Shown in pieces: positions 443 to 36,878 of a DNA stretch of 37,751 bases. Position 1 is the first letter of the stretch; each line of letters opens with the position of its first letter. A program made the position numbers and the translations under genes. The stretch comes from a virus. The notes under the pieces were generated by a model. That model was not told the DNA's origin, searched no databases, and saw only the letters and a program-made list of their open reading frames with translations. Where the stretch lies: the IMG/VR virus record IMGVR_UViG_3300031825_000050, positions 1 to 37,751 of that record. One strand, written 5' to 3'.

Positions 443-472
443 GAAAAAGCCCATGTAATCATGGGCTTTTTC
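443..472. terminator. Rho-independent terminator beside attL
   Basis: A perfect 13-bp inverted repeat (GAAAAAGCCCATG at 443-455, CATGGGCTTTTTC at 460-472) has a TAAT loop and A/T tracts on both sides, so it can work in both directions. In the uninserted chromosome it would lie a few bases beyond the 3' end of leftward tRNA-Ser(UGA), so it is probably the original tRNA terminator now separated from its gene by the prophage. Confidence 0.8.
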
Positions 473-479
473 GAAAAAA

Positions 480-508
480 TGGCGGAGGCGGTGAGATTCG
501 AACTCACG
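480..508. repeat. attL: attL core: 29-bp copy of the tRNA-Ser 3' end
   Basis: These 29 bases are identical to 36850-36878, the T-arm, acceptor strand and CCA end of tRNA-Ser on the minus strand. Identity stops abruptly at both ends. The copy lacks the rest of the tRNA, so it is the displaced chromosomal 3' end left by site-specific integration. It marks the left boundary of the prophage. Confidence 0.93.
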
Positions 509-1124
509 ATTTGGCGTTTTTAGCGCATCGAGGTCCCGTATTTACTGGGCTGCAGAGCAGTTGAGTGGATGAATCTGTTCCCAGAATGTTCCCATGAATG
601 GAAGCGTGCGCGGGAGGAAATGGCCGTACGGTGGGGGGAGTACACATTTTTTGTTGACCCACCAAAATCAGGTAATTTTGGTTAGGTTTTGATTTTTTAG
701 GAAAAATCTCTTTTAAATCAATTGGTTGAGAGATATTCGAAAAGGTAATTTTTGGGTTGTCTGGAGGTAAGGGACTTACCTGAACTCATGGTTGTCTTGC
801 CGAAACAAAAAATCCTTATAAATCAGTGAATTAGAGAAAAATTACCTCGAGGCTTACCAACGATTACCCGTCAAGGTTAGCGGTCTAGGCCAGTAAATAC
901 GAGGGCTCCAGCTTAGGCTGAGAGGCTCATAACCAAAATTACCCGTTTCGGTTTTACCCCCTGGGTCCCTGGCTGGATAGCGAGGCCCAGCATCTTCAGG
1001 AACGGCAGGGCCTTCGCAGGGATTCGCAGGCATTTTACCCACCTCGAACTCATCCAGGGCCCCCGTACTGGGCTGGCGGGACGCTGCTGCAGGGCCGCAG
1101 AAAAAGCGACATATTTAGCCCGCA
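509..1124. other. Non-coding attachment/cos arm with repeats
   Basis: No convincing gene lies between attL and the cos candidate. The stretch holds a pair of TTCCCA hexamers 11 bp apart (578-583, 589-594), also found in the attR arm. It also holds an AT-rich segment with iterated GGTAATTTT motifs: plus strand at 671 and 744, minus strand at 837-846, 862-869 and 930-943. A hairpin ACCAAAAT/ATTTTGGT lies at 661-682 and a small palindrome GGTAAG/CTTACC at 766-780. These look like protein-binding sites, for integrase or accessory factors or for terminase, rather than coding sequence. Roles are inferred. Confidence 0.55.
671..943. repeat. Inverted copies of GGTAATTTTGGTTA
   Basis: GGTAATTTTGGTTA occurs at 671-684 on the plus strand and, perfectly, at 930-943 on the minus strand. 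Degenerate copies lie between them (744-758 plus; 837-846 and 862-869 minus). The array sits between attL and cos and may be arm-type integrase sites or a terminase-binding array. No equivalent full-length copy was seen near attR. Confidence 0.6.
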
Positions 1125-1143
1125 GGCGTGGCGGGGGGACGAC
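1125..1143. other. cos: Putative cos site (cohesive-end packaging site)
   Basis: GGCGTGGCGGGG at 1125-1136 matches the first twelve bases of the 19-base cohesive end of coliphage 186 as I remember it, and is close to that of P2 (GGCGAGGCGGGG). The flanks are GC-rich with a short AT patch (ATATTTA) at 1111-1117. The position, between the attachment site and the leftmost cargo, matches the attP-cos-ctx order of phiCTX. Exact nick positions cannot be read from sequence. Confidence 0.65.
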
Positions 1144-1271
1144 GGCGCGCGCCGGGTGCTGGTAGGGGCGGAGTGATGGCCGAGCGGGCGGGCGCCTGCA
1201 GGTGAAGGGTAGGGGATGCGGTGGGTGTCGGTGAATCGGGCCGCGTGCGGGCCGTGAGGCGGCCGGAAAGC

Positions 1272-1302
1272 AAAAGGCCCGGTGGAGATAGCCGGGCCTT
1301 TT
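1272..1302. terminator. Bidirectional terminator downstream of the AbiV gene
   Basis: The inverted repeat AAAAGGCCCGG (1272-1282) and CCGGGCCTTTT (1292-1302) has a 9-base loop and A/T tracts on both sides. It lies about 50 bases after the stop of the leftward AbiV-like gene, ends that transcript, and shields cos and the attachment arm. Confidence 0.85.
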
Positions 1303-1353
1303 GTCTAGAGAGTGGAGGTTAGGTCGGTAGACAAAGCGGTGCTGTTGTCTGCC

Positions 1354-1974
1354 CTACTTGCTAACGATGTCAAAAATATTAGTTAGCTCTTTATCAATCT
1401 CAAATGTATAGTCGGTTAGTCCGACAAGTCGATCATCCCAAGCTTCTAAAGCGAGCAGCAATATTTCTCGTGCTTCTTTTTTAGTAAATATATCTTTGGG
1501 GGTTGTGAATTTGCCGTTCGCTGAATTAATGTAAAGTGATGACTCTCTAACTCTGATGAGTTCTCCTGTTTCTGCCATATTTAGTAGCTCTCGAACCCTT
1601 TCCTCTCCAATGGCGTTTGGTAATCTGGTGCCGACTGCAATAACTTCTTGTAAAGCAATTGAGTGCTTCGCCTTATGACTAAATAGGTGATCTTCTTTTC
1701 GATTTTTCGCTGGGGCCGTTAAGCTTTCATTTCGATAAAGTGCTATTTTTAGCTTTGCAATTTCTTCAATTGCAGTGATGGCAATAAATATGCTTGTTGG
1801 AAATGATTCGGACACATAAAGCTGAAAAGCACTATGCAGTAATCCACTTATATGGTTGCAGCCGCGGTTGAACTCGGATGAAAGATTTTCTTTGCTAAAG
1901 AATACTTGGCCTTTTGCTTCTGCTTCGAGTGCTAACTGAATTTTTCGATGTGCGGCCTTATAATCAATCTCCAT
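1354..1974 (-). CDS. AbiV-family abortive infection protein (HEPN-like)
   Basis: A 206-residue, probably all-helical protein. I see TAIEEIAK (residues 67-74) and FSHKAKH (98-104), the pair of conserved blocks I associate with AbiV proteins, which belong to the HEPN superfamily. Lactococcal AbiV blocks phage development by inhibiting phage protein synthesis; whether this homologue does the same is inferred. The ATG has an AGGAG about nine bases upstream. The gene is markedly AT-rich compared with the structural genes, which points to separate acquisition. It is leftward, downstream of the FRG gene with a 167-base gap, and ends at a strong terminator. The likely role is a cargo gene protecting the lysogen from other phages. 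Confidence 0.75.
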   Translation of the reverse strand: MEIDYKAAHRKIQLALEAEAKGQVFFSKENLSSEFNRGCNHISGLLHSAFQLYVSESFPTSIFIAITAIEEIAKLKIALYRNESLTAPAKNRKEDHLFSHKAKHSIALQEVIAVGTRLPNAIGEERVRELLNMAETGELIRVRESSLYINSANGKFTTPKDIFTKKEAREILLLALEAWDDRLVGLTDYTFEIDKELTNIFDIVSK

Positions 1975-2141
1975 GCCTGTCTACTCCTAACATATAGCGC
2001 GGCCGGCGCTGTGCGGCTTCATTACACAGAACCAGCGACTGAAGGTGAAATGTTGCGCGAGCATATTATGCGATTATTTCTTCAACTGCTCTGGCGCCTG
2101 CTAAATTTGGTTGTGGGCGGCTACTGAATCTTCGCAATTTT

Positions 2142-3014
2142 TTACAATTCACCAGACAGTTTACGTGCTCTCTTCCATTCTATGGCCGATTTTGCAGCAC
2201 CATCAAAACCAGGGAATAGGGAAGCAGCGGAGATTCCATATCTTTCACATCGTTTAAGTAGCTCTGGAACGTGTTGGCTGTCAGTTGTGATCTGGTAAAT
2301 ATAGAGACTTTCGTTTTCTGAAAAAACTCTATGTGAATCTTCTTCTATGGTTTCAATTGAAAGTATAGTATTTCTTCCGGTACTCTTTTGTCTGTGAAAA
2401 GTGAAGACGCCTCTTTGTGCTGCAAGATTTACGCTTGTGCTACCTGGCATAGATAAAAAAACAATGTCTTCACTTTTGCTCTTAAGTTCTTTTGTATCAA
2501 AGGCCCAGATTGAAATCTTCTCTGGTAGATCATCTTTTGCAAGCGCTTGAGATGCCGCAAAGTATATTGCGGTCAATGGATTTGTTGTCCAATCTAACAG
2601 CCTTGTCGGTACTCCGTGATGTTGTGCTAGCGCGATAAAGTTGTAGTACTCTAAAGATGGCCACTCATCGGTAGATATTCCATACTTATCTGCGAAGTTG
2701 AAGAATTCCATTGCCTCTCTGAATTCTCTGGAATCATTCGGTATTCTGTGTCCCATCTGGTCACAATAATAAAGAAAACCACTCAGGATTCTATGCTCCA
2801 TGAAAATGGTGAAATCCGCATGGCTTCTGCTATCAATGTATGCTGCGTACCTTTTGATAGTCATGGATCGGAGAATAGAAGGTACCAGTTTCCAGTTTGC
2901 ATCACCTTGTCCCCTGAAAATTGGAGACCCAAAGCTTTCAAAGAACCCCCCTATCGGAGACAGGTAGTCCCAGAATTCATCAATACAAACAAAGTCTTTT
3001 ATAACTACGGTCAT
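2142..3014 (-). CDS. FRG-domain protein, probable defence cargo
   Basis: A 290-residue protein named for the FRG box: PIFRGQGDANWKLVPSILR at residues 31-49, then AQHHGVPTRLLDWTTNP at 130-146 and AIYFAA at 149-154. These are the hallmark blocks of the FRG domain (named after its N-terminal motif), whose biochemical activity is not established to my knowledge; members occur in phage-defence and mobile contexts. No signal peptide or membrane segment is seen. The ATG at 3014 is the only reasonable start because an in-frame stop lies three codons upstream, but the ribosome binding site is weak. The gene is AT-rich, leftward, and sits between portal gene Q and the AbiV-like gene. Confidence 0.75.
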   Translation of the reverse strand: MTVVIKDFVCIDEFWDYLSPIGGFFESFGSPIFRGQGDANWKLVPSILRSMTIKRYAAYIDSRSHADFTIFMEHRILSGFLYYCDQMGHRIPNDSREFREAMEFFNFADKYGISTDEWPSLEYYNFIALAQHHGVPTRLLDWTTNPLTAIYFAASQALAKDDLPEKISIWAFDTKELKSKSEDIVFLSMPGSTSVNLAAQRGVFTFHRQKSTGRNTILSIETIEEDSHRVFSENESLYIYQITTDSQHVPELLKRCERYGISAASLFPGFDGAAKSAIEWKRARKLSGEL

Positions 3015-3221
3015 GTGGATGCATCATCTGTAACTAGAGTTAGTTCTGATAAATAAAGTTGGCAGTGACAAATGTCTTCGACCAACACTGTCTGGAATAT
3101 GGATTCCTCGACCACGCCGACCTTATACACTACGTGCACCAATACTAGTCAGTCCCTCAATCAGGTCATCTGCTTCGACATTCCGAAGGTAAGCAGGAGC
3201 CGATAGGCCGGCATGGATGGC

Positions 3222-4229
3222 TCAGCCGGTCGTACCCGGTAGCTCATAGGGCTTGAACTGGATCACCTCTTCGCCGACCCATTCGTTTACCTGCAGCATG
3301 CGCGCCTGCACCGGCTCCAGCTCGTTGGCAGCGTAGACCAGCGCCGCGTCGCGGATCGAGCCGAAGCCCCCGGCGTTCTGCGGGACGATGCCCATCAGCT
3401 GCGGCGGGATGCGCAGCCCGGCCAGCATGTCGTCGCGGGTAATGTTCTTGATCCCGGCGAACTCGTCCTTGGCCGCCACCTCGCTGATCGGGATCAGCTG
3501 GATGCCGTCCTTCTTGCCGTTCGGACTGTAGAGGAACAGGTTGCGGAAGTTGCCCGGCCCCTTCGAGTTCTTCAACGCCTCGCGCATCGCATCGATGTCG
3601 GCTTGGTTCTGCGCGGCATCGGTGACGTAGAGGATGAACCCGGCGTGCGAGCCGTTGAGGTAGTAGCGCCGGCGGAACAGGGTGGCCGACTCGTTGAGCA
3701 GCGCTGCCTGCAGGGCGGCCATCCACTCCGGAAGGCCGTAGATCTCCTGGTGAATGTCCGCCTCGCGCAGGTGGAACACGCTGCCGGGGTCGAACTCATG
3801 CACGTCCGCCCCGCTCTGCACCATGAAGAACCGCTCGTCGCGGCCGCGGCGCATGTACTTGGCCAGCGGCGGCTGCAGGCTCAGAACGCCGCCGAGGCGG
3901 TTGCGCCGCGCCTCCAGGTAGGCGTTGCCGCACCACAGCCAGTCCAGGGCGAACTGCTCGAACGCCTGCCGGCTCAGCTTGGGGTGCGGCACGAAGGTGC
4001 GGCTGAGCATGTTGCGCTTGAAGGTCAACCCGGACTGCAGGTAGACGCTGGCGCGGGTCGCGCGGGCCAGCCCGTCGAGGTTGATCGGCGGCTCGTACCA
4101 GCAGCCGTTCCACCAGGACTCCAGATAGTCGAGCAGCTCGCGCCCGTCGAGCACCGGGGTGGGGTCGCCGAAGGTGAACGCCTCGATCCCCGGCATGGGG
4201 GCGGCCTGCGCCGGCAGTTGGTCGGTCAT
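3222..4229 (-). CDS. Q: Portal protein (P2 gpQ-like)
   Basis: A 335-residue portal protein, close to the roughly 344 of P2 gpQ. The dodecameric portal forms the DNA entry vertex of the capsid and docks terminase. Family features include DWLWCGNAYLE, the YLNGSHAGFILYVTD stretch and the C-terminal KDEFAGIKNITRDDML...RIPPQLMGI segment typical of PBSX/P2-type portals. The ATG at 4229 overlaps the stop of terminase gene P by one base (TGATG), so the two are translationally coupled; a longer in-frame opening to 5021 is only the antisense-like extension through P. It is transcribed leftward from the region shared with O. Confidence 0.93.
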   Translation of the reverse strand: MTDQLPAQAAPMPGIEAFTFGDPTPVLDGRELLDYLESWWNGCWYEPPINLDGLARATRASVYLQSGLTFKRNMLSRTFVPHPKLSRQAFEQFALDWLWCGNAYLEARRNRLGGVLSLQPPLAKYMRRGRDERFFMVQSGADVHEFDPGSVFHLREADIHQEIYGLPEWMAALQAALLNESATLFRRRYYLNGSHAGFILYVTDAAQNQADIDAMREALKNSKGPGNFRNLFLYSPNGKKDGIQLIPISEVAAKDEFAGIKNITRDDMLAGLRIPPQLMGIVPQNAGGFGSIRDAALVYAANELEPVQARMLQVNEWVGEEVIQFKPYELPGTTG

Positions 4230-6039: not shown

Positions 6040-6058
6040 TGTAGCGCCCGCCGCTACA
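6040..6058. promoter_or_regulatory. Ogr/Delta-type late activator site, P/O promoter region
   Basis: TGTAGCGCCCGCCGCTACA is a 19-bp interrupted palindrome with 7-bp arms. It lies between divergent genes P and O, where P2 has its late promoters PP and PO. The same block, followed by ACCCCCGC, recurs before V and FI. P2 Ogr binds TGT-N12-ACA centred near -55; here the spacing is TGT-N13-ACA. No obvious -10 or -35 box is visible, as expected for an activator-dependent promoter. Being a palindrome, it could serve both directions. Confidence 0.8.
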
Positions 6059-13232: not shown

Positions 13233-13251
13233 TGTAGCGCCCGCCGCTACA
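13233..13251 (+). promoter_or_regulatory. Ogr/Delta-type late activator site before V
   Basis: TGTAGCGCCCGCCGCTACA, identical to the copy at 6040-6058, starts four bases after the S stop and 67 bases before the V start. It corresponds to the P2 late promoter PV. The identical downstream ACCCCCGC suggests that selection extends beyond the palindrome. Confidence 0.82.
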
Positions 13252-18956: not shown

Positions 18957-18975
18957 TGTAGCGCCTGCCGCTACA
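18957..18975 (+). promoter_or_regulatory. Ogr/Delta-type late activator site before FI
   Basis: TGTAGCGCCTGCCGCTACA differs from the other two copies by one base in the central spacer, with both 7-bp arms kept and the same ACCCCCGC downstream. It lies 78 bases before the sheath gene, at the place of P2 promoter PF. Confidence 0.82.
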
Positions 18976-21172: not shown

Positions 21173-21309
21173 ACGAGGCGATGGCGGACATCGCCCTGGT
21201 CTTCCACTGGGGACCGGAGACGATGGCCGCCATGCCCCTGCCCGAACTGATGGACTGGCGCGAGCGCGCCCGAGAACGATGGGAACTCATGCATGGCGCG
21301 GGATCTTAG
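20870..21309 (+). CDS. E+E': E+E' fusion made by programmed -1 frameshift
   Basis: The heptamer T TTT TTC at 21124-21130 lies in the E frame as codons TTT TTC. Slipping back one base joins E to an overlapping open frame that continues with AEEAGNHGLPRSVDEAMADI and ends at 21309. The extension has the E' signature (DIALVFHW and LPELMDWRERARERWE). This reproduces the P2 E/E' arrangement (P2 uses T TTT TTG). The fused product would be about 146 residues. The frames were checked by position (E in frame 2, E' in frame 1). The end overlaps the T start by 17 bases. Confidence 0.9.
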
Positions 21310-24031
21310 CCTCAAGGTCAACCTCAAGGCCCTGGACAACGCCACCAAGCCGATGCGCTCGGTGCTCGCCGGCGCGCAGGGCCTGGGCCGCGCCCTGCGC
21401 GACACCCGCGACGAACTCAAGGGCCTGCAGGCCCGGCAGAAGGACGTCTCCAGCTTCCGCAGCCTGAAGAGCGAGAGCGAGCGGACCGGCGCCGCCCTGC
21501 AGGCCAACCGCGACAAGATCCGCCAGCTCTCCCGGGAGCTGGCCAATACCGAAGCGCCGACCAAGGCGCTCAGCAAGGCGTTCCAGAGCGCGGTGCGCGA
21601 GGGCCAGACGCTCAAGCAGAAGCTCGGCGAACAGCAGCGCCAGTTGCAGTCGCTGCGCGACGAACTGGGCCAGGCGGGCGTTGCCTTCCAATCGCTGGAC
21701 GGCAAGCTCAGAGGCCTGAACCCGAGCGAAGGCCTGGCCGCCTACGAAAAGGCGCTCCGCCAGCAGATCGACAGCGCCAACCGCAGCATCGAAGACCAGG
21801 AGCGGCGCCTCAAGCGCCTGACCATCCAGCAGCAGCGCCTGGCCAAGGCCCGTGACGCCCACGCCAGAACCCAGGGGCTGGCCGGCAGCATGGCCGCCAC
21901 CGGCGCCGGCGGGGTGGCCTCCGGCAGCGGCATCCTCTACACCGGCATGCGGCTGATCGACCCGCAGCTCGCCGCCCAGCAGCAGGGTTCGCGGATCGCC
22001 GCGCAGAACGGCGAGGCGGGCAAGGCCGGGCAGTACACCGGCATCGTCCGGCGCATGCGCGCCGACGGCGTGAGCGGCGACACCGCAGCCATCGGCGAGG
22101 CCGTCTCCGCGACCAGCAGCACCCTGCGGGCCCTGGGCAAGGTCAGCGACGCGGAGCTGGAGCGCGCCTCGCGCAAGGCGCTCGACCTGGCCACCGTCAT
22201 GGGCGGCGACCTGGCCGAGCAGGTGCAGACGGTCGGCATCCTCATGAAGAACGGCCTGGCGGCCAACAGCGACCAGGCCTTCGACCTGCTGACCCGTGGG
22301 CTGCAGCAGGTCTCGACGCAGATGCGCGGCGAGATGCCGGAGATCCTCCATGAGTATTCCACCCACTTCCGCAACATGGGCTTCAGTGGCCAGGAGACCA
22401 TGAGCCTGCTGGTGGACATGGCCAAGCAGGGCAAGTACGCCCTGGACAAGACCGGCGACGCCATCAAGGAATTCAGCATCCGCGGCTCGGACATGTCGAA
22501 GAAGAGCCAGGAGGCCTACAAGACCATCGGCCTTGATGCGCAGAAAATGTCGGATGCAATCGCCAGCGGTGGCCCCAAGGCGCGCGAAGCCCTGGCGAAA
22601 ACGGCCAAGGGCCTGCTAGCCATCAAGAGCCCGGCGGACCGGGCCAATGCCGCCATCGCCCTGTTCGGCACGCCGGTGGAGGACCTCTCCATCGACCAGA
22701 TCCCCGCCTTCCTCAAGGCGCTGGCGGGCGGCACCGATCACCTGGGCCGGTTCGAGGGCGCGGCCGACCAACTCGGCACCACCCTGCGCGACAACCTGAG
22801 CGGCGACATCGCCCGGCTCTCCGGGGCCTGGAGCGAGCTGGGGTCCTCGCTGATGGAGAGCCAGGACGGCGCACTGCGGTCTCTCGTCCAGACCATCACC
22901 GGCCTGGTCACGGGGATGAAGAGCTGGGCGGCCGAGCATCCGGTGCTGACCGGTCACATCGTCAAGACCGCCCTCGGTCTCGGCCTGCTGATGGCGCTCG
23001 GCGGCGGCCTCACCCTGGTACTCGGCAGCATCCTCGGTCCGCTGGCCATGGTCCGCTACGGCATGATGCTGTTCGGCATCCGCAGCCTGGGCCTGGCCGG
23101 CACACTGACTAGCCTGGCCCGCACCGCGCTGCCGCTGGTGGCCCAGGGCATCCAGCTGGTCGGCCGGGCCCTGTTGATGAACCCCATCGGTTTGGCCGTC
23201 ACCGCCATCGCCGGCGGCGCCTTCCTGATCTGGCAGAACTGGGAAACCCTGGGGCCGAAGTTCAAGGCGATATGGGCCGAGATCCAGCTCGCCGGCACCC
23301 TGACCATGGACTGGTTCGCCGGCCTGCCGGCCCGCTTCGTCCAGCTCGGCGGCGATATCCTGCGCGGCCTGGCCAGCGGCATCACCGGCGCCCTCGGCAG
23401 CGTCAAGGAGGCCGTCGTCGGCGCCGGGGAGGGCGCCATCGGCTGGTTCAAGGAGAAGCTCGGCATCCACTCGCCGTCGCGGGTGTTCGCCGAGCTGGGC
23501 GGCTACACCATGGCCGGACTCGAGCAGGGCATCCAGACCGGGCAGAAGAACCCGTTCGCCGCCCTGGACCAGACCGCCCAGGGCATGGCGCAGAAGGGGC
23601 AGGCGATTGCCGATGCCAACCCCTTCGCCGCCCTGGACGGCGCTGCCCAGGCCGCGCCCAAGCTGGCCGGCGCCGGCAATCCTTTTGCCGCGCTGGACTC
23701 GGCTGCCAAGGCCGCGCCCAAGGTGGCCAGCTCCGGCAATCCCTTCGCCGCGCTGGACTCGGCTGCCAAGGCCGCGCCCAAGGCGGCCAGCGCCGGCAAC
23801 CCCTTCGCCGCGCTGGGCCGTCAGCCGCCGGCGGTCGACAACCGACCGGCCCTGGCTGCGGCCCGTCCCGCCGCGGCGCCGGCCGCGGGCGGCAACACCT
23901 ACAACATCACCGTCCACGCTACGCCGGGCATGGACCCGCAAGCGATCGGCCGCGCCGTCGCCGCCGAGCTGGACCGCCGCGAACGCTCGCAGCAGGCCAG
24001 CACCCGCAGCGCGCTCTACGACCGGGAGTGA
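21293..24031 (+). CDS. T: Tail tape measure protein (P2 gpT-like)
   Basis: A 912-residue protein (P2 gpT about 815). Residues 1-200 are coiled coil (TKPMRSVLAGAQGLGRALRD, many Gln/Arg/Glu heptads). The middle (about 220-500) is the conserved tape measure core, and hydrophobic segments follow around 560-640 (GLGLLMALGGGLTLVLGSIL). A classical KEKLGIHSPSRVF motif lies near residue 730. The last part contains five NPFAAL repeats. It sets tail length and is ejected with the DNA. The ATG lies within the end of E'. Confidence 0.95.
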   Translation: MARDLSLKVNLKALDNATKPMRSVLAGAQGLGRALRDTRDELKGLQARQKDVSSFRSLKSESERTGAALQANRDKIRQLSRELANTEAPTKALSKAFQSAVREGQTLKQKLGEQQRQLQSLRDELGQAGVAFQSLDGKLRGLNPSEGLAAYEKALRQQIDSANRSIEDQERRLKRLTIQQQRLAKARDAHARTQGLAGSMAATGAGGVASGSGILYTGMRLIDPQLAAQQQGSRIAAQNGEAGKAGQYTGIVRRMRADGVSGDTAAIGEAVSATSSTLRALGKVSDAELERASRKALDLATVMGGDLAEQVQTVGILMKNGLAANSDQAFDLLTRGLQQVSTQMRGEMPEILHEYSTHFRNMGFSGQETMSLLVDMAKQGKYALDKTGDAIKEFSIRGSDMSKKSQEAYKTIGLDAQKMSDAIASGGPKAREALAKTAKGLLAIKSPADRANAAIALFGTPVEDLSIDQIPAFLKALAGGTDHLGRFEGAADQLGTTLRDNLSGDIARLSGAWSELGSSLMESQDGALRSLVQTITGLVTGMKSWAAEHPVLTGHIVKTALGLGLLMALGGGLTLVLGSILGPLAMVRYGMMLFGIRSLGLAGTLTSLARTALPLVAQGIQLVGRALLMNPIGLAVTAIAGGAFLIWQNWETLGPKFKAIWAEIQLAGTLTMDWFAGLPARFVQLGGDILRGLASGITGALGSVKEAVVGAGEGAIGWFKEKLGIHSPSRVFAELGGYTMAGLEQGIQTGQKNPFAALDQTAQGMAQKGQAIADANPFAALDGAAQAAPKLAGAGNPFAALDSAAKAAPKVASSGNPFAALDSAAKAAPKAASAGNPFAALGRQPPAVDNRPALAAARPAAAPAAGGNTYNITVHATPGMDPQAIGRAVAAELDRRERSQQASTRSALYDRE
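23549..23818 (+). repeat. 60-bp tandem repeat within the tape measure gene
   Basis: Five copies of a unit encoding NPFAAL start at 23549, 23618, 23678, 23738 and 23798. The last three intervals are exactly 60 bp (20 residues) and the first is 69. The units from 23678 on are nearly identical at the DNA level, pointing to recent duplication. The reading frame is kept throughout. Confidence 0.9.
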
Positions 24032-25827: not shown

Positions 25828-27249
25828 TCAAGACATCATAAAGGCATCAACATCAGCAACGGTGCGTAGTATTTCACTTTCCTTGACTTGATAAGCAGTA
25901 GCAAGCTCGGCACTTCTGCACAAAATTAGCCTGCGATTTAATTCGAAATCGAATGCGGCTTTTGTTAGATCCCCAAGCTTATCGAATTTGGCATCGATTT
26001 CAGCAATAACACGTTTACTTGCCTCGTCGAGCCTATCTAGAAAAGCTTGCATCTCTGCACGCACTCTCGCACCATCTGCTTTGGTTAGACCAACTGCAAA
26101 TTGGGTGAGCATTTTTCCTGAGATTGATCCAATAACAGCGCCAAGCACTGGAATCGGAATAAGTGTTTGCCCTGCTACAGTTGCCAAGCCAACGATGGCA
26201 GATTCAGAACAAATAGCTAAGCCGAGTTCTAGGAACTCCTCAGTGTTAATCTTTCCCGATGCAAGGTCAGCTGATAAGGAAGCAACTCCTTTGGTGGCAC
26301 TTACTATTGCGCCGGCAAATGGTGCAGATAAGTCGGCATAGTTGGTTAGGATGTAAATTGATCCGCCCGCTATTGCGCCGCCAACTCCAGATTTACTTGC
26401 ATCAATGCCAACTTCTTTCCAATCTTCAGCAGTGAGTTCTCCTTTAAAGATGTTCTTGCCGCCCTTATATTTACGATAAAGGGATACTGACAGCCCTATG
26501 CCTGCAGCAAGACCTCCAGCGATTGCTGAGGCCTGGGCAGCACCAGCTAGAGAGGGCTGATGGTCTGCTTGAATCTGCTCCTTTTTGAGATCACTCTCTC
26601 GTTTTATGTCTTGTTCATGTCGATCAATAGTTCGGTGTACTGCTCCTTGTTGAGGCTCTGCATAGGTGGAGATGCCAGGGCGTACAACCTCATCAAAAGG
26701 CTTTCCAGTTAACCTTTCAATTTCTGCTATCTTTTCTAGAATCGCAGTCTTAGCATGAGGGTCATTTCTTAATCTAAGAATGTCTTCATATTGATCTTTG
26801 GGGATGTGATAGTATGAGGAGCCATCGCGTCCAAAATTACTATATTTATTCATGTGCTCAAGCACGCCTTTCAGCGTGTTGTTTGCACCGTTATAGAATT
26901 TGGATTGGACGGCATCGCCGTTGATAATATAGTCAACGCTATCAGTGCGGCCGATATTATCAATGCTTGCTGTTAGTGTCTCTCCTTTAAGGGCTGATCG
27001 AGCGTTTCGTATCCCAACCTCAAGCTGCTCGGCAATTTCACCATGCTTTGTTGCTGGATTTCCTAAGATGTTTTCAGGAGAGCCAATAAAGTTTCGTATT
27101 TTTTGCATCTCCTCCATTGCGGAGGAGAAAGCTTTGTCTGTGTTGTGTAGAGATGTTGTTTTTGCTTGTTCTCTGGCATTGTTAATAATGTCAACTACGA
27201 TGCCGCTAAGCTGGTCTTCGACGGTATGAGATGTGCGTGAACGGCTCAT
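25828..27249 (-). CDS. Unknown cargo protein; possible PD-(D/E)XK-like half plus Gly/Ala-rich hydrophobic half
   Basis: A 473-residue protein of unknown family. The N-terminal half is soluble; it has KHGEIAEQLEVGI (Glu71, Glu74) and then VDYIINGDAVQSKF (Asp106, Gln115, Lys117). The spaced E...D...QxK pattern recalls restriction-endonuclease-like folds such as Mrr, which use QxK, but this is only a motif reading. The C-terminal half has three Gly/Ala-rich hydrophobic stretches (about 233-256, 287-325, 350-388) and then a helical tail (398-430, ARVRAEMQAFLDRLDEASKR). It is AT-rich and leftward. The ATG overlaps the stop of the 27246 gene by four bases, so the two are coupled. No match to any P2 structural or regulatory gene. 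It is a candidate effector or sensor of a defence operon. Confidence 0.8.
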   Translation of the reverse strand: MSRSRTSHTVEDQLSGIVVDIINNAREQAKTTSLHNTDKAFSSAMEEMQKIRNFIGSPENILGNPATKHGEIAEQLEVGIRNARSALKGETLTASIDNIGRTDSVDYIINGDAVQSKFYNGANNTLKGVLEHMNKYSNFGRDGSSYYHIPKDQYEDILRLRNDPHAKTAILEKIAEIERLTGKPFDEVVRPGISTYAEPQQGAVHRTIDRHEQDIKRESDLKKEQIQADHQPSLAGAAQASAIAGGLAAGIGLSVSLYRKYKGGKNIFKGELTAEDWKEVGIDASKSGVGGAIAGGSIYILTNYADLSAPFAGAIVSATKGVASLSADLASGKINTEEFLELGLAICSESAIVGLATVAGQTLIPIPVLGAVIGSISGKMLTQFAVGLTKADGARVRAEMQAFLDRLDEASKRVIAEIDAKFDKLGDLTKAAFDFELNRRLILCRSAELATAYQVKESEILRTVADVDAFMMS

Positions 27250-28100
27250 TTAACATCTATCTTAAGATTGAGAAGTTTGGATAGCGATCTAACGTGGTTG
27301 ATTAGGGCGCCGATCTGCTCGCGTTGTTCACGATTGAAATATGCATAGTCACGAGGGGCTTTGTATAGTAAATGGCTAAATAACTTGTCAAGACCGTCCA
27401 GGTGACTCTTTGTTAGATCTTTGATTCTTACAATTTCACGTAGTGCCGCGTTAAGAGTTGCAGTGTGCGTGGAGATTTTCTTTCGCTGCTTATTAGCATC
27501 TTCTGCAATCTTTCCATTCTGGCGACGCATATAAAGACCGCTCCCTACCAGAGCAGTGCTTCCAATTATCACGCCGACTGGACCTGCTAGCGCCAGTAAG
27601 GCTGATCCGGCGCTCATTCCGCCACCACCTGCAGCTAAGGCTCCACCACCTAACCATGCCAAGGCCGCATTTGCCGCAGCTGCACCTGACAGAGCGGAAA
27701 TAGCTGTGCCGGTAGAGGCGGTTCCAAAAGTGGTGGCAATGGCCATTGCAGCCGTAGGTGCAAGGGCTGCGGTACCTACACCAGCAGCAACGCCCGCAGC
27801 CGAAGCGCCGCCAGCCTTCACGCTTGCCTTCTGTGCCTCTACCTCTAACTCATGCAGAATGTTAGTGAAGATGGTAAATTCGGCCTTGTATTCAGAAAAG
27901 GTTTTATCAAACTCTTTTGGCTTGTTAGCAAGAGAGTTGATATAAGCCTCAATGGCCGGAATTATTCCTTTGCTACTAGATGCTCGAAGCTCATAGAGTT
28001 TAATGGATGCTTCTTGCGTGGTTTTGCACTGTTTCTCGTATTCTTTATGAGTTCTCTCTAGTGCCTCTAGTGCTTCCTTCTTTAATCCGCCGTTTAACAT
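27246..28100 (-). CDS. Unknown cargo protein with coiled coil and glycine-zipper-like segment
   Basis: A 284-residue protein. Residues 1-95 are helical and charged (coiled-coil-like). Residues 97-190 are a long Gly/Ala/Ser-rich hydrophobic stretch (for example GTASTGTAISALSGAAA and GGGALAAGGGGMSAGSALL) ending in AGPVGVIIGSTALVGSGLYM. Residues 195-284 are again helical and basic. This layout is compatible with a membrane-inserting, pore-type effector held by coiled coils; that role is inferred. AAGGA lies upstream of the ATG. It is the middle gene of a three-gene leftward AT-rich operon, 52 bases after the NYN gene and overlapping the last gene. Base composition within the Gly/Ala part is higher in GC, as the residues demand. 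Confidence 0.8.
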   Translation of the reverse strand: MLNGGLKKEALEALERTHKEYEKQCKTTQEASIKLYELRASSSKGIIPAIEAYINSLANKPKEFDKTFSEYKAEFTIFTNILHELEVEAQKASVKAGGASAAGVAAGVGTAALAPTAAMAIATTFGTASTGTAISALSGAAAANAALAWLGGGALAAGGGGMSAGSALLALAGPVGVIIGSTALVGSGLYMRRQNGKIAEDANKQRKKISTHTATLNAALREIVRIKDLTKSHLDGLDKLFSHLLYKAPRDYAYFNREQREQIGALINHVRSLSKLLNLKIDVK

Positions 28101-28152
28101 CTTGTAATTCCTTAATTGCTGAGTTGTAGCTCTTTTGCATCGAGCGCTGATT

Positions 28153-28881
28153 CTATCTATGTAAGTTGTTTCGTATTTTTACGTGTAGATGGTTGACGAT
28201 CCCAGCAGAGTCTGGCACCTCTTTGCATTCCAGATATCCTTGTTGCCGAACTAAAGTGCTGAGCTTTGTAAAGCCATAGTTTCGCGGGTCAAAGGATGTG
28301 TTGTTTTTACTGATGAAGTATCCAACAGCTGAAAGCTTAGCCCATCCGTCATCATGCGAGGTTTCATTAATTGCATGAGATAGAAGATCTTTTAGGTTAG
28401 GCAGATCTTCTACTGTCGCTGATGCATTTTGGTTGTCAACTTTACGTAAGACCTCTAAGAAAACAAACTTATCGCATGCTGCGATAAATGACTCTGGCGT
28501 CTTTCTCTCGCCGAATCCATAAACTACTTTCCCTGCTTCCCGTAGGCGCGTCGCAAGTCTCGTGAAGTCGCTGTCGCTCGAAACTATGCAGAAGCCATCA
28601 ACATGGCCTGCATAAAGGATGTCCATGGCATCTATAATGAAAGCTGAGTCTGTAGAGTTTTTGCCTTTGGTATATGCAAACTGCTGCATGGGCTGGATTG
28701 CATAACGGTGCAGTTGGTCTTTCCACCTTACTAAATTTTGTGTGGTCCAGTCTCCATAAGCACGTTTGATTGTGGCTACTCCAAATTTCGTTACTTCTTC
28801 TAATAGTTCTTTGATAACGGATGATGAAGCGTTGTCCGCGTCAATCAGTACAGCAAGTTTTGCTGGGTCCTTATTTGACAT
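28153..28881 (-). CDS. NYN-domain RNase with C-terminal OST-HTH/LOTUS domain
   Basis: A 242-residue protein. The NYN (PIN-like) nuclease fold shows LIDADNAS (Asp14, Asp16, Asn17), the STDSAFIIDAMDILY block (Asp78, Asp84) and IVSSDSDFTRLATRLREAG (Asp103, Asp105), which together make the acidic metal site. After a linker near 145-158, residues 160-238 (LKDLLSHAINE, FDPRNYGFTKLSTLVRQQGY) fit an OST-HTH/LOTUS RNA-binding domain, as in bacterial LabA-like proteins. It would bind and cut RNA, or act as a regulator. It is the first gene of the three-gene leftward cargo operon and AT-rich. No convincing promoter box could be fixed upstream of 28881. Confidence 0.88.
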   Translation of the reverse strand: MSNKDPAKLAVLIDADNASSSVIKELLEEVTKFGVATIKRAYGDWTTQNLVRWKDQLHRYAIQPMQQFAYTKGKNSTDSAFIIDAMDILYAGHVDGFCIVSSDSDFTRLATRLREAGKVVYGFGERKTPESFIAACDKFVFLEVLRKVDNQNASATVEDLPNLKDLLSHAINETSHDDGWAKLSAVGYFISKNNTSFDPRNYGFTKLSTLVRQQGYLECKEVPDSAGIVNHLHVKIRNNLHR

Positions 28882-36849: not shown

Positions 36850-36878
36850 TGGCGGAGGCGGTGAGATTCGAACTCACG
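36850..36878. repeat. attR: attR core within tRNA-Ser
   Basis: The 29-bp block is identical to 480-508. It covers the T-arm/acceptor 3' half of the tRNA and its encoded CCA. It restores the tRNA and defines the right boundary of the prophage. Confidence 0.93.

What the first reader, a model, noticed from the sequence alone, without database searches (positions are those of the whole stretch)
1354..3014. AbiV-like and FRG-domain genes at the phiCTX cytotoxin position
In phiCTX the order is attP-cos-ctx followed by late genes. Here the same slot, between cos and Q, carries an AT-rich pair with abortive-infection features. This marks the locus as a variable cargo site. The two genes may act together, or be independent morons, since a 167-base gap separates them.
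Basis: partly seen in the sequence, partly recalled or inferred. Interest (0 to 1): 0.62.

Follow-up and report, generated by a model that had tools for sequence, protein, structure and literature searches.

The report
Defence-gene cargo beside phage cos site
A phiCTX-like prophage carries two foreign, probably independent anti-phage genes (an AbiV-type HEPN protein and an FRG-domain protein with an ADP-ribosyltransferase-like fold) in a slot that related phages fill with other genes, so it is a new example of a known kind of phage-borne defence hotspot.

Summary
Two AT-rich genes (GC 0.39 and 0.41, against about 0.67 in Q and P) lie between the cos site (about 1125-1143) and portal gene Q (3222-4229) of a P2/phiCTX-like prophage in tRNA-Ser. 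Gene 1354-1974 is a clear AbiV (PADLOC 7e-67; solved homologues 9bj5/6/7 at 1e-34). Gene 2142-3014 is a clear FRG protein (Pfam 6e-20); its high-confidence model resembles ADP-ribosyltransferases. The slot is variable: 45 Q-cos slots gave 35 gene arrangements, and none of the others holds either gene. The closest relative found (portal 94% identical) carries another gene there. This refutes the 'fixed core gene' alternative. The cos-Q hotspot itself is published (phiCTX ctx, phiRSY1, E. coli P2). No recurrent FRG-AbiV unit was found: no AbiV near about 160 FRG genes, and none of 48 FRG genes within 10 kb of a HEPN-type Abi gene in 348 Pseudomonadaceae genomes. Best reading: two independently acquired single-gene defences, whose activity is inferred and untested. 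A broader pattern emerged: FRG genes recur in P2-like phages, in the cos-Q slot and an S-V slot. New member of a known kind.

The parts
480..508 (.). attachment-site copy (29 bp identical to 36850-36878 at the 3' end of tRNA-Ser)
1125..1143 (.). putative cos site, P2-type GGCGTGGCGGGGGGA (start inferred; exact cut not known)
   Evidence: Smp131 record base 1 aligns to window 1125; motif scan; the block around 1016-1153 is conserved in Citexvirus records
1267..1303 (.). hairpin with T-runs on both sides (terminator-like on both strands) between the cargo and cos; approximate limits
   Evidence: RNA folds -22.4 (minus strand, z -3.8) and -27.2 kcal/mol (plus strand, z -3.2)
1354..1974 (-). AbiV-family HEPN protein, 206 aa; Shine-Dalgarno-like AGGAG upstream
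   Evidence: PADLOC AbiV 7.4e-67, TIGR04498 9e-27, PF18728 2e-15, 9bj5/9bj7 at 9e-35/1e-34; conserved H100, R143, E70, E71
1975..2141 (-). 167-base intergenic gap; no promoter-like or terminator-like site above chance, no Rfam match
2142..3014 (-). FRG-domain protein, 290 aa, predicted ADP-ribosyltransferase-like fold
   Evidence: PF08867 6e-20, PADLOC PDC-S15 1.5e-38, phrog_4962 5e-55, model pLDDT 91.9, structure comparison
3222..4229 (-). portal gene Q, inner border of the slot
   Evidence: 335 aa; about 72% protein identity to Citexvirus portals

Best explanation
The interval is the cos-Q accessory slot of a Citexvirus-like (phiCTX group) P2-type prophage. In this phage it holds two separately acquired, single-gene anti-phage effectors that act in the lysogen against competing phages. 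(1) FRG protein: a cytosolic enzyme with an ADP-ribosyltransferase-like fold. It probably stays off until it senses infection, then uses NAD+, either draining it, making an ADP-ribose signal, or modifying a target. (2) AbiV: a HEPN protein that stays inactive until a product of the invading phage triggers it, and then blocks phage gene expression by attacking or binding RNA or the translation apparatus. Shown here: gene identities, position, foreign composition, slot variability, ART-like fold of the FRG model, conserved candidate HEPN residues. Inferred: expression in the lysogen, anti-phage activity, triggers and chemistry.
For: Families. Slot and att anatomy. Foreign composition. Slot variability. 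ART-like fold: model pLDDT 91.9; rows 1-30 of the VIA comparison are nearly all ADP-ribosyltransferases or ART-fold toxins at Z 5.3-3.3 (one exception, 6yhn), while unrelated rows below reach at most 2.6; R34, G35, H132, G134, P136, T137, D141 and Q200 are identical in 55 of 55 homologues. PMC9503650 places Frg in the ART superfamily and suggests NADase activity. AbiV keeps the features described for the family in PMC3710099: the Rx4-6H arginine is present but its histidine is replaced (R143ESSLY) and a second conserved His lies before it (H100). Independence. Hotspot precedent: PMC9122126, PMC5694545.
Against: No experiment on either gene. Z of at most 5.3 for the FRG fold is low in absolute terms, and Foldseek alone gave no significant match. 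The FRG chemistry is a literature prediction. AbiV lacks the canonical HEPN RNase motif. The gap between the genes shows no promoter above chance, so co-transcription is possible and would fit a joint unit as well.
Confidence: 0.66

Rival explanations
1. FRG and AbiV form one two-gene defence system, for example an NAD+-using FRG enzyme that makes a signal or modification which switches on the AbiV RNase-like effector.
For: Same strand, adjacent, similar composition; no terminator or promoter above chance between them. Elsewhere single FRG genes lie beside other HEPN-type or RNA-linked genes: AbiU2 in L094, Abi_2 in plasmid L011, AlbA_2 in L095 and L098/L099.
Against: No AbiV-like gene near any of about 160 FRG loci with up to 6 kb flanks. 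In 348 Pseudomonadaceae genomes 6 have AbiV, 45 have FRG, 1 has both on different contigs; none of 48 FRG genes lies within 10 kb of AbiV, AbiU2 or Abi_2 on the same contig. The three plasmid AbiV genes examined (L173-L175) have no FRG neighbour in the annotated stretch. FRG partners in tight operons elsewhere are other families.
Confidence: 0.1
2. The genes are lysogenic-conversion cargo with a role other than defence, for example host stress or fitness, as ctx is in phiCTX.
For: The same slot carries a toxin gene in phiCTX and many slot genes in relatives have no defence-family match.
Against: Both families are linked to phage defence in curated libraries and papers, and the P2 cos-proximal slot is a proven reservoir of anti-phage systems in E. 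coli.
Confidence: 0.17
3. The genes are passengers: intact but not expressed or no longer functional in this prophage.
For: No recognisable sigma-70 promoter above chance; a weak ribosome-binding site before FRG (by eye).
Against: Both reading frames are intact with conserved key residues; AbiV has a good ribosome-binding site; readthrough from the P-Q operon is possible.
Confidence: 0.12

Closest known systems
phiCTX (Citexvirus) cos-orf1 slot carrying ctx
   Same: Same phage group, same order att-cos-cargo-Q (phiCTX order by PMC5694545 and the finding). Citexvirus records Dobby, Sirocco, D14A and PACL fill the slot with other genes or almost nothing.
   Different: The cargo here is two putative anti-phage genes, not a cytotoxin; portal protein only about 72% identical to Citexvirus records.
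Anti-phage hotspot of E. coli P2-like phages (Rousset et al. 2022, PMC9122126)
   Same: Small cos-proximal locus with rapid turnover, bordered by gpQ, holding single or few-gene defence systems.
   Different: There the locus runs from gpA to gpQ and the P2 reference carries old and tin in it. Here the cargo lies on the Q side of cos, with att on the other side. The term FRG does not occur in that paper's main text.
AbiV of Lactococcus and the solved AbiV proteins 9bj5, 9bj6, 9bj7
   Same: Full-length profile match; residues 32-202 align with 9bj5 at 9e-35.
   Different: Prophage-borne in a Gram-negative context, about 30-35% identical to the AbiV proteins aligned here; trigger unknown.
FRG / PDC-S15 candidate defence proteins; FRG protein of Salmonella phage SEN8
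   Same: Full-length FRG relatives, also in P2-like phages.
   Different: SEN8 FRG is 36% identical and sits between tail genes S and V; the nearest relatives of the window FRG (48-50%) lie in Methylobacter and Methylotenera MAGs and a 4-kb viral contig.

Membership tests
AbiV family | full-length match above curated cut-off | tested here: met
   TIGR04498 94.2 bits vs cut-off 27; PF18728 57.6 vs 27.1; PADLOC AbiV 7.4e-67
AbiV family | HEPN site variant: Rx4-6H arginine kept, histidine lost, alternative upstream His conserved (PMC3710099) | tested here: met
   R143ESSLY and H100 identical in all 5 aligned members at those positions (R143, H100 invariant); assignment of H100 as the alternative His is my reading of PMC3710099
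AbiV family | blocks phage after activation by a phage protein | not testable with these tools
   needs experiment
FRG domain (ART superfamily) | PF08867 above curated cut-off, with the FRG motif | tested here: met
   72.3 bits vs 25; F33-R34-G35; R34 and G35 in 55 of 55 homologues
FRG domain (ART superfamily) | ADP-ribosyltransferase fold | tested here: met
   model pLDDT 91.9; ART rows at Z 5.3-3.3 stand above unrelated rows at 2.6 or less. Support is modest: Foldseek alone not significant
FRG domain (ART superfamily) | NAD+ use | not testable with these tools
   predicted in PMC9503650
P2-like cos-Q accessory hotspot | lies between cos and portal gene Q | tested here: met
   cos about 1125-1143, Q 3222-4229
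P2-like cos-Q accessory hotspot | gene content turns over between close relatives | tested here: met
   35 arrangements in 45 slots, 58 protein clusters; 94%-portal relative has different cargo
P2-like cos-Q accessory hotspot | content gives phage resistance | not testable with these tools
   needs experiment
Joint FRG-AbiV system | the two genes co-occur as neighbours across genomes | tested here: not met

The most novel reading that the evidence does not exclude
The FRG enzyme and AbiV act as one rare two-component abortive-infection system, with NAD+-based sensing or signalling by an ART-fold protein coupled to a HEPN effector, assembled inside the cos-Q slot. More generally, P2-like phages may be a preferred vehicle in which FRG enzymes are combined with different RNA-targeting partners (AbiV here, AlbA_2 in L095 and L098/L099, AbiU2 in viral locus L094, whose phage type was not established).
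Probability: 0.1. Interest if true: 0.6.

Novelty: new member of a known kind. Interest (0 to 1): 0.36.

Why it matters
It extends the cos-proximal defence hotspot of P2-like phages, documented in E. coli, to the phiCTX group, whose slot is best known for a toxin gene. It puts two little-studied effectors, FRG and AbiV, in a tractable temperate-phage setting. FRG proteins have no solved structure by sequence search and I found no tested mechanism in the papers searched; their repeated capture by P2-like phages in two slots suggests that they are worth testing as anti-phage enzymes.

Tried and rejected
Joint FRG-AbiV unit: not supported. Wider FRG-HEPN linkage (AbiU2, Abi_2): seen in single loci, but none of 48 FRG genes in Pseudomonadaceae is so linked. 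Integron-cassette reading of the AT-rich pair: the 167-base gap was inspected by eye, no matching pair of recombination core sites was seen and the fold is not better than shuffles. Promoter in the gap: 3 promoter-like sites in 1100-3400 against 3.3 expected, none in the gap. Ogr-type late-promoter dyads: three in the window, none in the slot. Structured RNA in the slot: no Rfam match. AbiV model from one sequence was poor (pLDDT 57.9) and was not used; solved homologues were used instead. Exact relatives of the window pair: none in viral contigs by single-protein search, none in phages for AbiV, none in viral contigs with an AbiV alignment. The cytotoxin gene of phiCTX was deliberately not fetched.

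Full report
OBSERVATION. They are not chance frames: GC3 is 0.32 and 0.36 in a phage whose Q and P genes have 0.94-0.95, randomised sequence gives stop-free runs of at most 192 codons, and the family matches are decisive. The window is an IMG/VR record of 37,751 bases. The prophage lies between two 29-bp att copies, 480-508 and 36850-36878; the second ends an intact tRNA-Ser(tga). Portal gene Q is 3222-4229 (-) and the terminase P gene reaches 5992. The cos site is inferred at 1125-1143: the Smp131 record, which appears to open at cos, aligns base 1 to window 1125 (89.7% over 29 bases), where GGCGTGGCGGGGGGA resembles the P2 cos sequence (P2 sequence from memory), and 1016-1153 is a conserved block in Citexvirus records. 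A literature source confirms that ctx of phiCTX lies between cos and its gpQ-equivalent (PMC5694545).

WHAT THE GENES ARE. The 206-aa protein is AbiV: PADLOC AbiV 7.4e-67, TIGR04498 94 bits (cut-off 27), PF18728 above cut-off. By sequence it matches three solved AbiV entries, 9bj5, 9bj6 and 9bj7 (about 1e-34). AbiV is a HEPN family that lacks the His of the usual Rx4-6H motif but keeps the Arg and has another conserved His (PMC3710099); the window protein has R143ESSLY and H100, with R143, Y148 and H100 invariant in the five-member alignment. The 290-aa protein is an FRG-domain protein: PF08867 72 bits (cut-off 25), PADLOC candidate PDC-S15, phrog_4962. A model from 55 homologues has mean pLDDT 91.9. 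Foldseek alone is not significant, but realignment of its candidates puts ADP-ribosyltransferases or ART-fold toxins in nearly all of the first 30 rows (Z 5.3-3.3, including KptA, Arr and DarT; one exception), with unrelated rows below at 2.6 or less. This agrees with the published placement of Frg in the ART superfamily as a possible NADase (PMC9503650). R34 and G35 of the FRG motif, H132, G134, P136, T137, D141 and Q200 are identical in all 55.

VARIABLE SLOT. Four Citexvirus records hold other genes or almost nothing between Q and cos: Dobby and PACL three ORFs, Sirocco three others, D14A 158 bases. Of 80 viral contigs with related portals, plus these records, Smp131 and the window, 45 had a recognisable slot: 35 different arrangements and 58 protein clusters by a simple ORF caller. 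The profile searches found no AbiV outside the window and the reference plasmids, and no FRG in the portal-selected loci, within the fetched stretch. The closest relative, L176 (portal 94% identical), has an unrelated 349-aa ORF after Q. Slot genes elsewhere include methyltransferases, Rmr-type proteins, toxin-antitoxin and SRAP genes. The hotspot is known: PMC5694545 cites earlier work for it, and Rousset et al. found 1,650 arrangements at the cos-proximal locus of E. coli P2-like phages and validated anti-phage systems there (PMC9122126).

TOGETHER OR INDEPENDENT. About 80 FRG loci from bacterial and archaeal genomes and 80 from viral contigs contain no AbiV-like gene within the fetched flanks. 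In 348 Pseudomonadaceae genomes AbiV occurs in 6 and FRG in 45; one genome has both, on different contigs. Adding AbiU2 and Abi_2, none of 48 FRG genes lies within 10 kb of any of the HEPN-type Abi genes on the same contig. So no conserved pair was found; the neighbourhood looks like the chance result of two captures in one slot. Co-transcription is still possible: no promoter or terminator above chance lies between the genes, AbiV has a good ribosome-binding site, and a strong hairpin with T-runs closes the cargo before cos. No Ogr-type dyad lies in the slot.

ORIGIN OF THE FRG GENE. Of the 80 viral FRG loci, 26 also carry P2-like structural genes (a 27th locus in that list, L033, comes from a bacterial genome). 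FRG sits near Q/cos in a few (L095, L096, L098, L099) and downstream of gene M, in the S-V region as in Salmonella phage SEN8, in most of the others (the S-V position was read from annotation only in SEN8 and inferred from distance elsewhere). In a 91-row tree the S-V genes fall in two well separated parts of the tree, and the window FRG belongs to a supported clade of 9 with chromosomal, plasmid and viral genes, sister to a clade holding the other cos-Q genes. The tree tool's own count of label changes ignores unlabelled rows and is not used here. Repeated capture is the simplest reading.

MECHANISM. Shown: identities, position, composition, slot turnover, fold resemblance. Inferred: the genes are expressed in the lysogen and stop or kill infection by competing phages, FRG through NAD+ use and AbiV through a HEPN-type block on RNA or translation after triggering by a phage product. 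The AbiV trigger model comes from lactococcal work, cited from general knowledge.

VERDICT.

Noticed in passing
window 25828-28881 (-): A second AT-rich cargo site between the tail genes and the repressor: PADLOC candidate two-gene system PDC-M09B (2e-180) and PDC-M09A (1e-115), plus a NYN nuclease / OST-HTH (LOTUS) protein. The prophage thus carries two defence-like cargo sites.
   Followed up: partly
window 6040-6058, 13233-13251, 18957-18975: Three near-identical dyads TGTAGCGCC(C/T)GCCGCTACA, 0.03 matches expected by chance: probably Ogr-type late activator sites (inference).
   Followed up: partly
L101-L106, L111, L124, L125, L128 and others; SEN8 L004:4971-5906: FRG genes recur in P2-like phages in the S-V region, from at least two separate parts of the FRG tree.
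   Followed up: partly
L022:2817-10479: In a Neisseriaceae MAG an FRG gene lies between recC and recB, overlapping the recC end by 8 bases: a possible RecBCD-linked guard. Seen in one locus only.
   Followed up: partly
L277, L278, L279: Three Pseudomonadaceae genomes have FRG followed within 4 bases by a GmrSD_N (DUF262) gene, the partner conserved down to 38% identity: a recurrent FRG two-gene operon.
   Followed up: partly
L049, L064, L069 (Chloroflexota): An RVT_1 reverse transcriptase gene directly precedes FRG in three loci: possible retron-like or Abi-RT system with an FRG effector. No Rfam match; the 150-base leader folds better than nearly all shuffles in L069 only.
   Followed up: partly
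L095:6862-7836, L098:2611-3954 and L099:4447-5790: In two cos-Q slots of other P2-like phages the gene after FRG is a Schlafen AlbA_2 protein (just under the cut-off in L098/L099, which look like copies of one locus).
   Followed up: partly
L301:4678-9194: FRG inserted next to a type I restriction hsdR-like gene with a duplicated 5' fragment of it on the other side (HSDR_N seen among neighbour matches).
   Followed up: no
window 23549-23816: 60-base coding repeats within the 21293-24031 ORF, 3-4 copies.
   Followed up: no
window 443-472: A strong hairpin with T-run directly beside the att copy (z -7.7).
   Followed up: no
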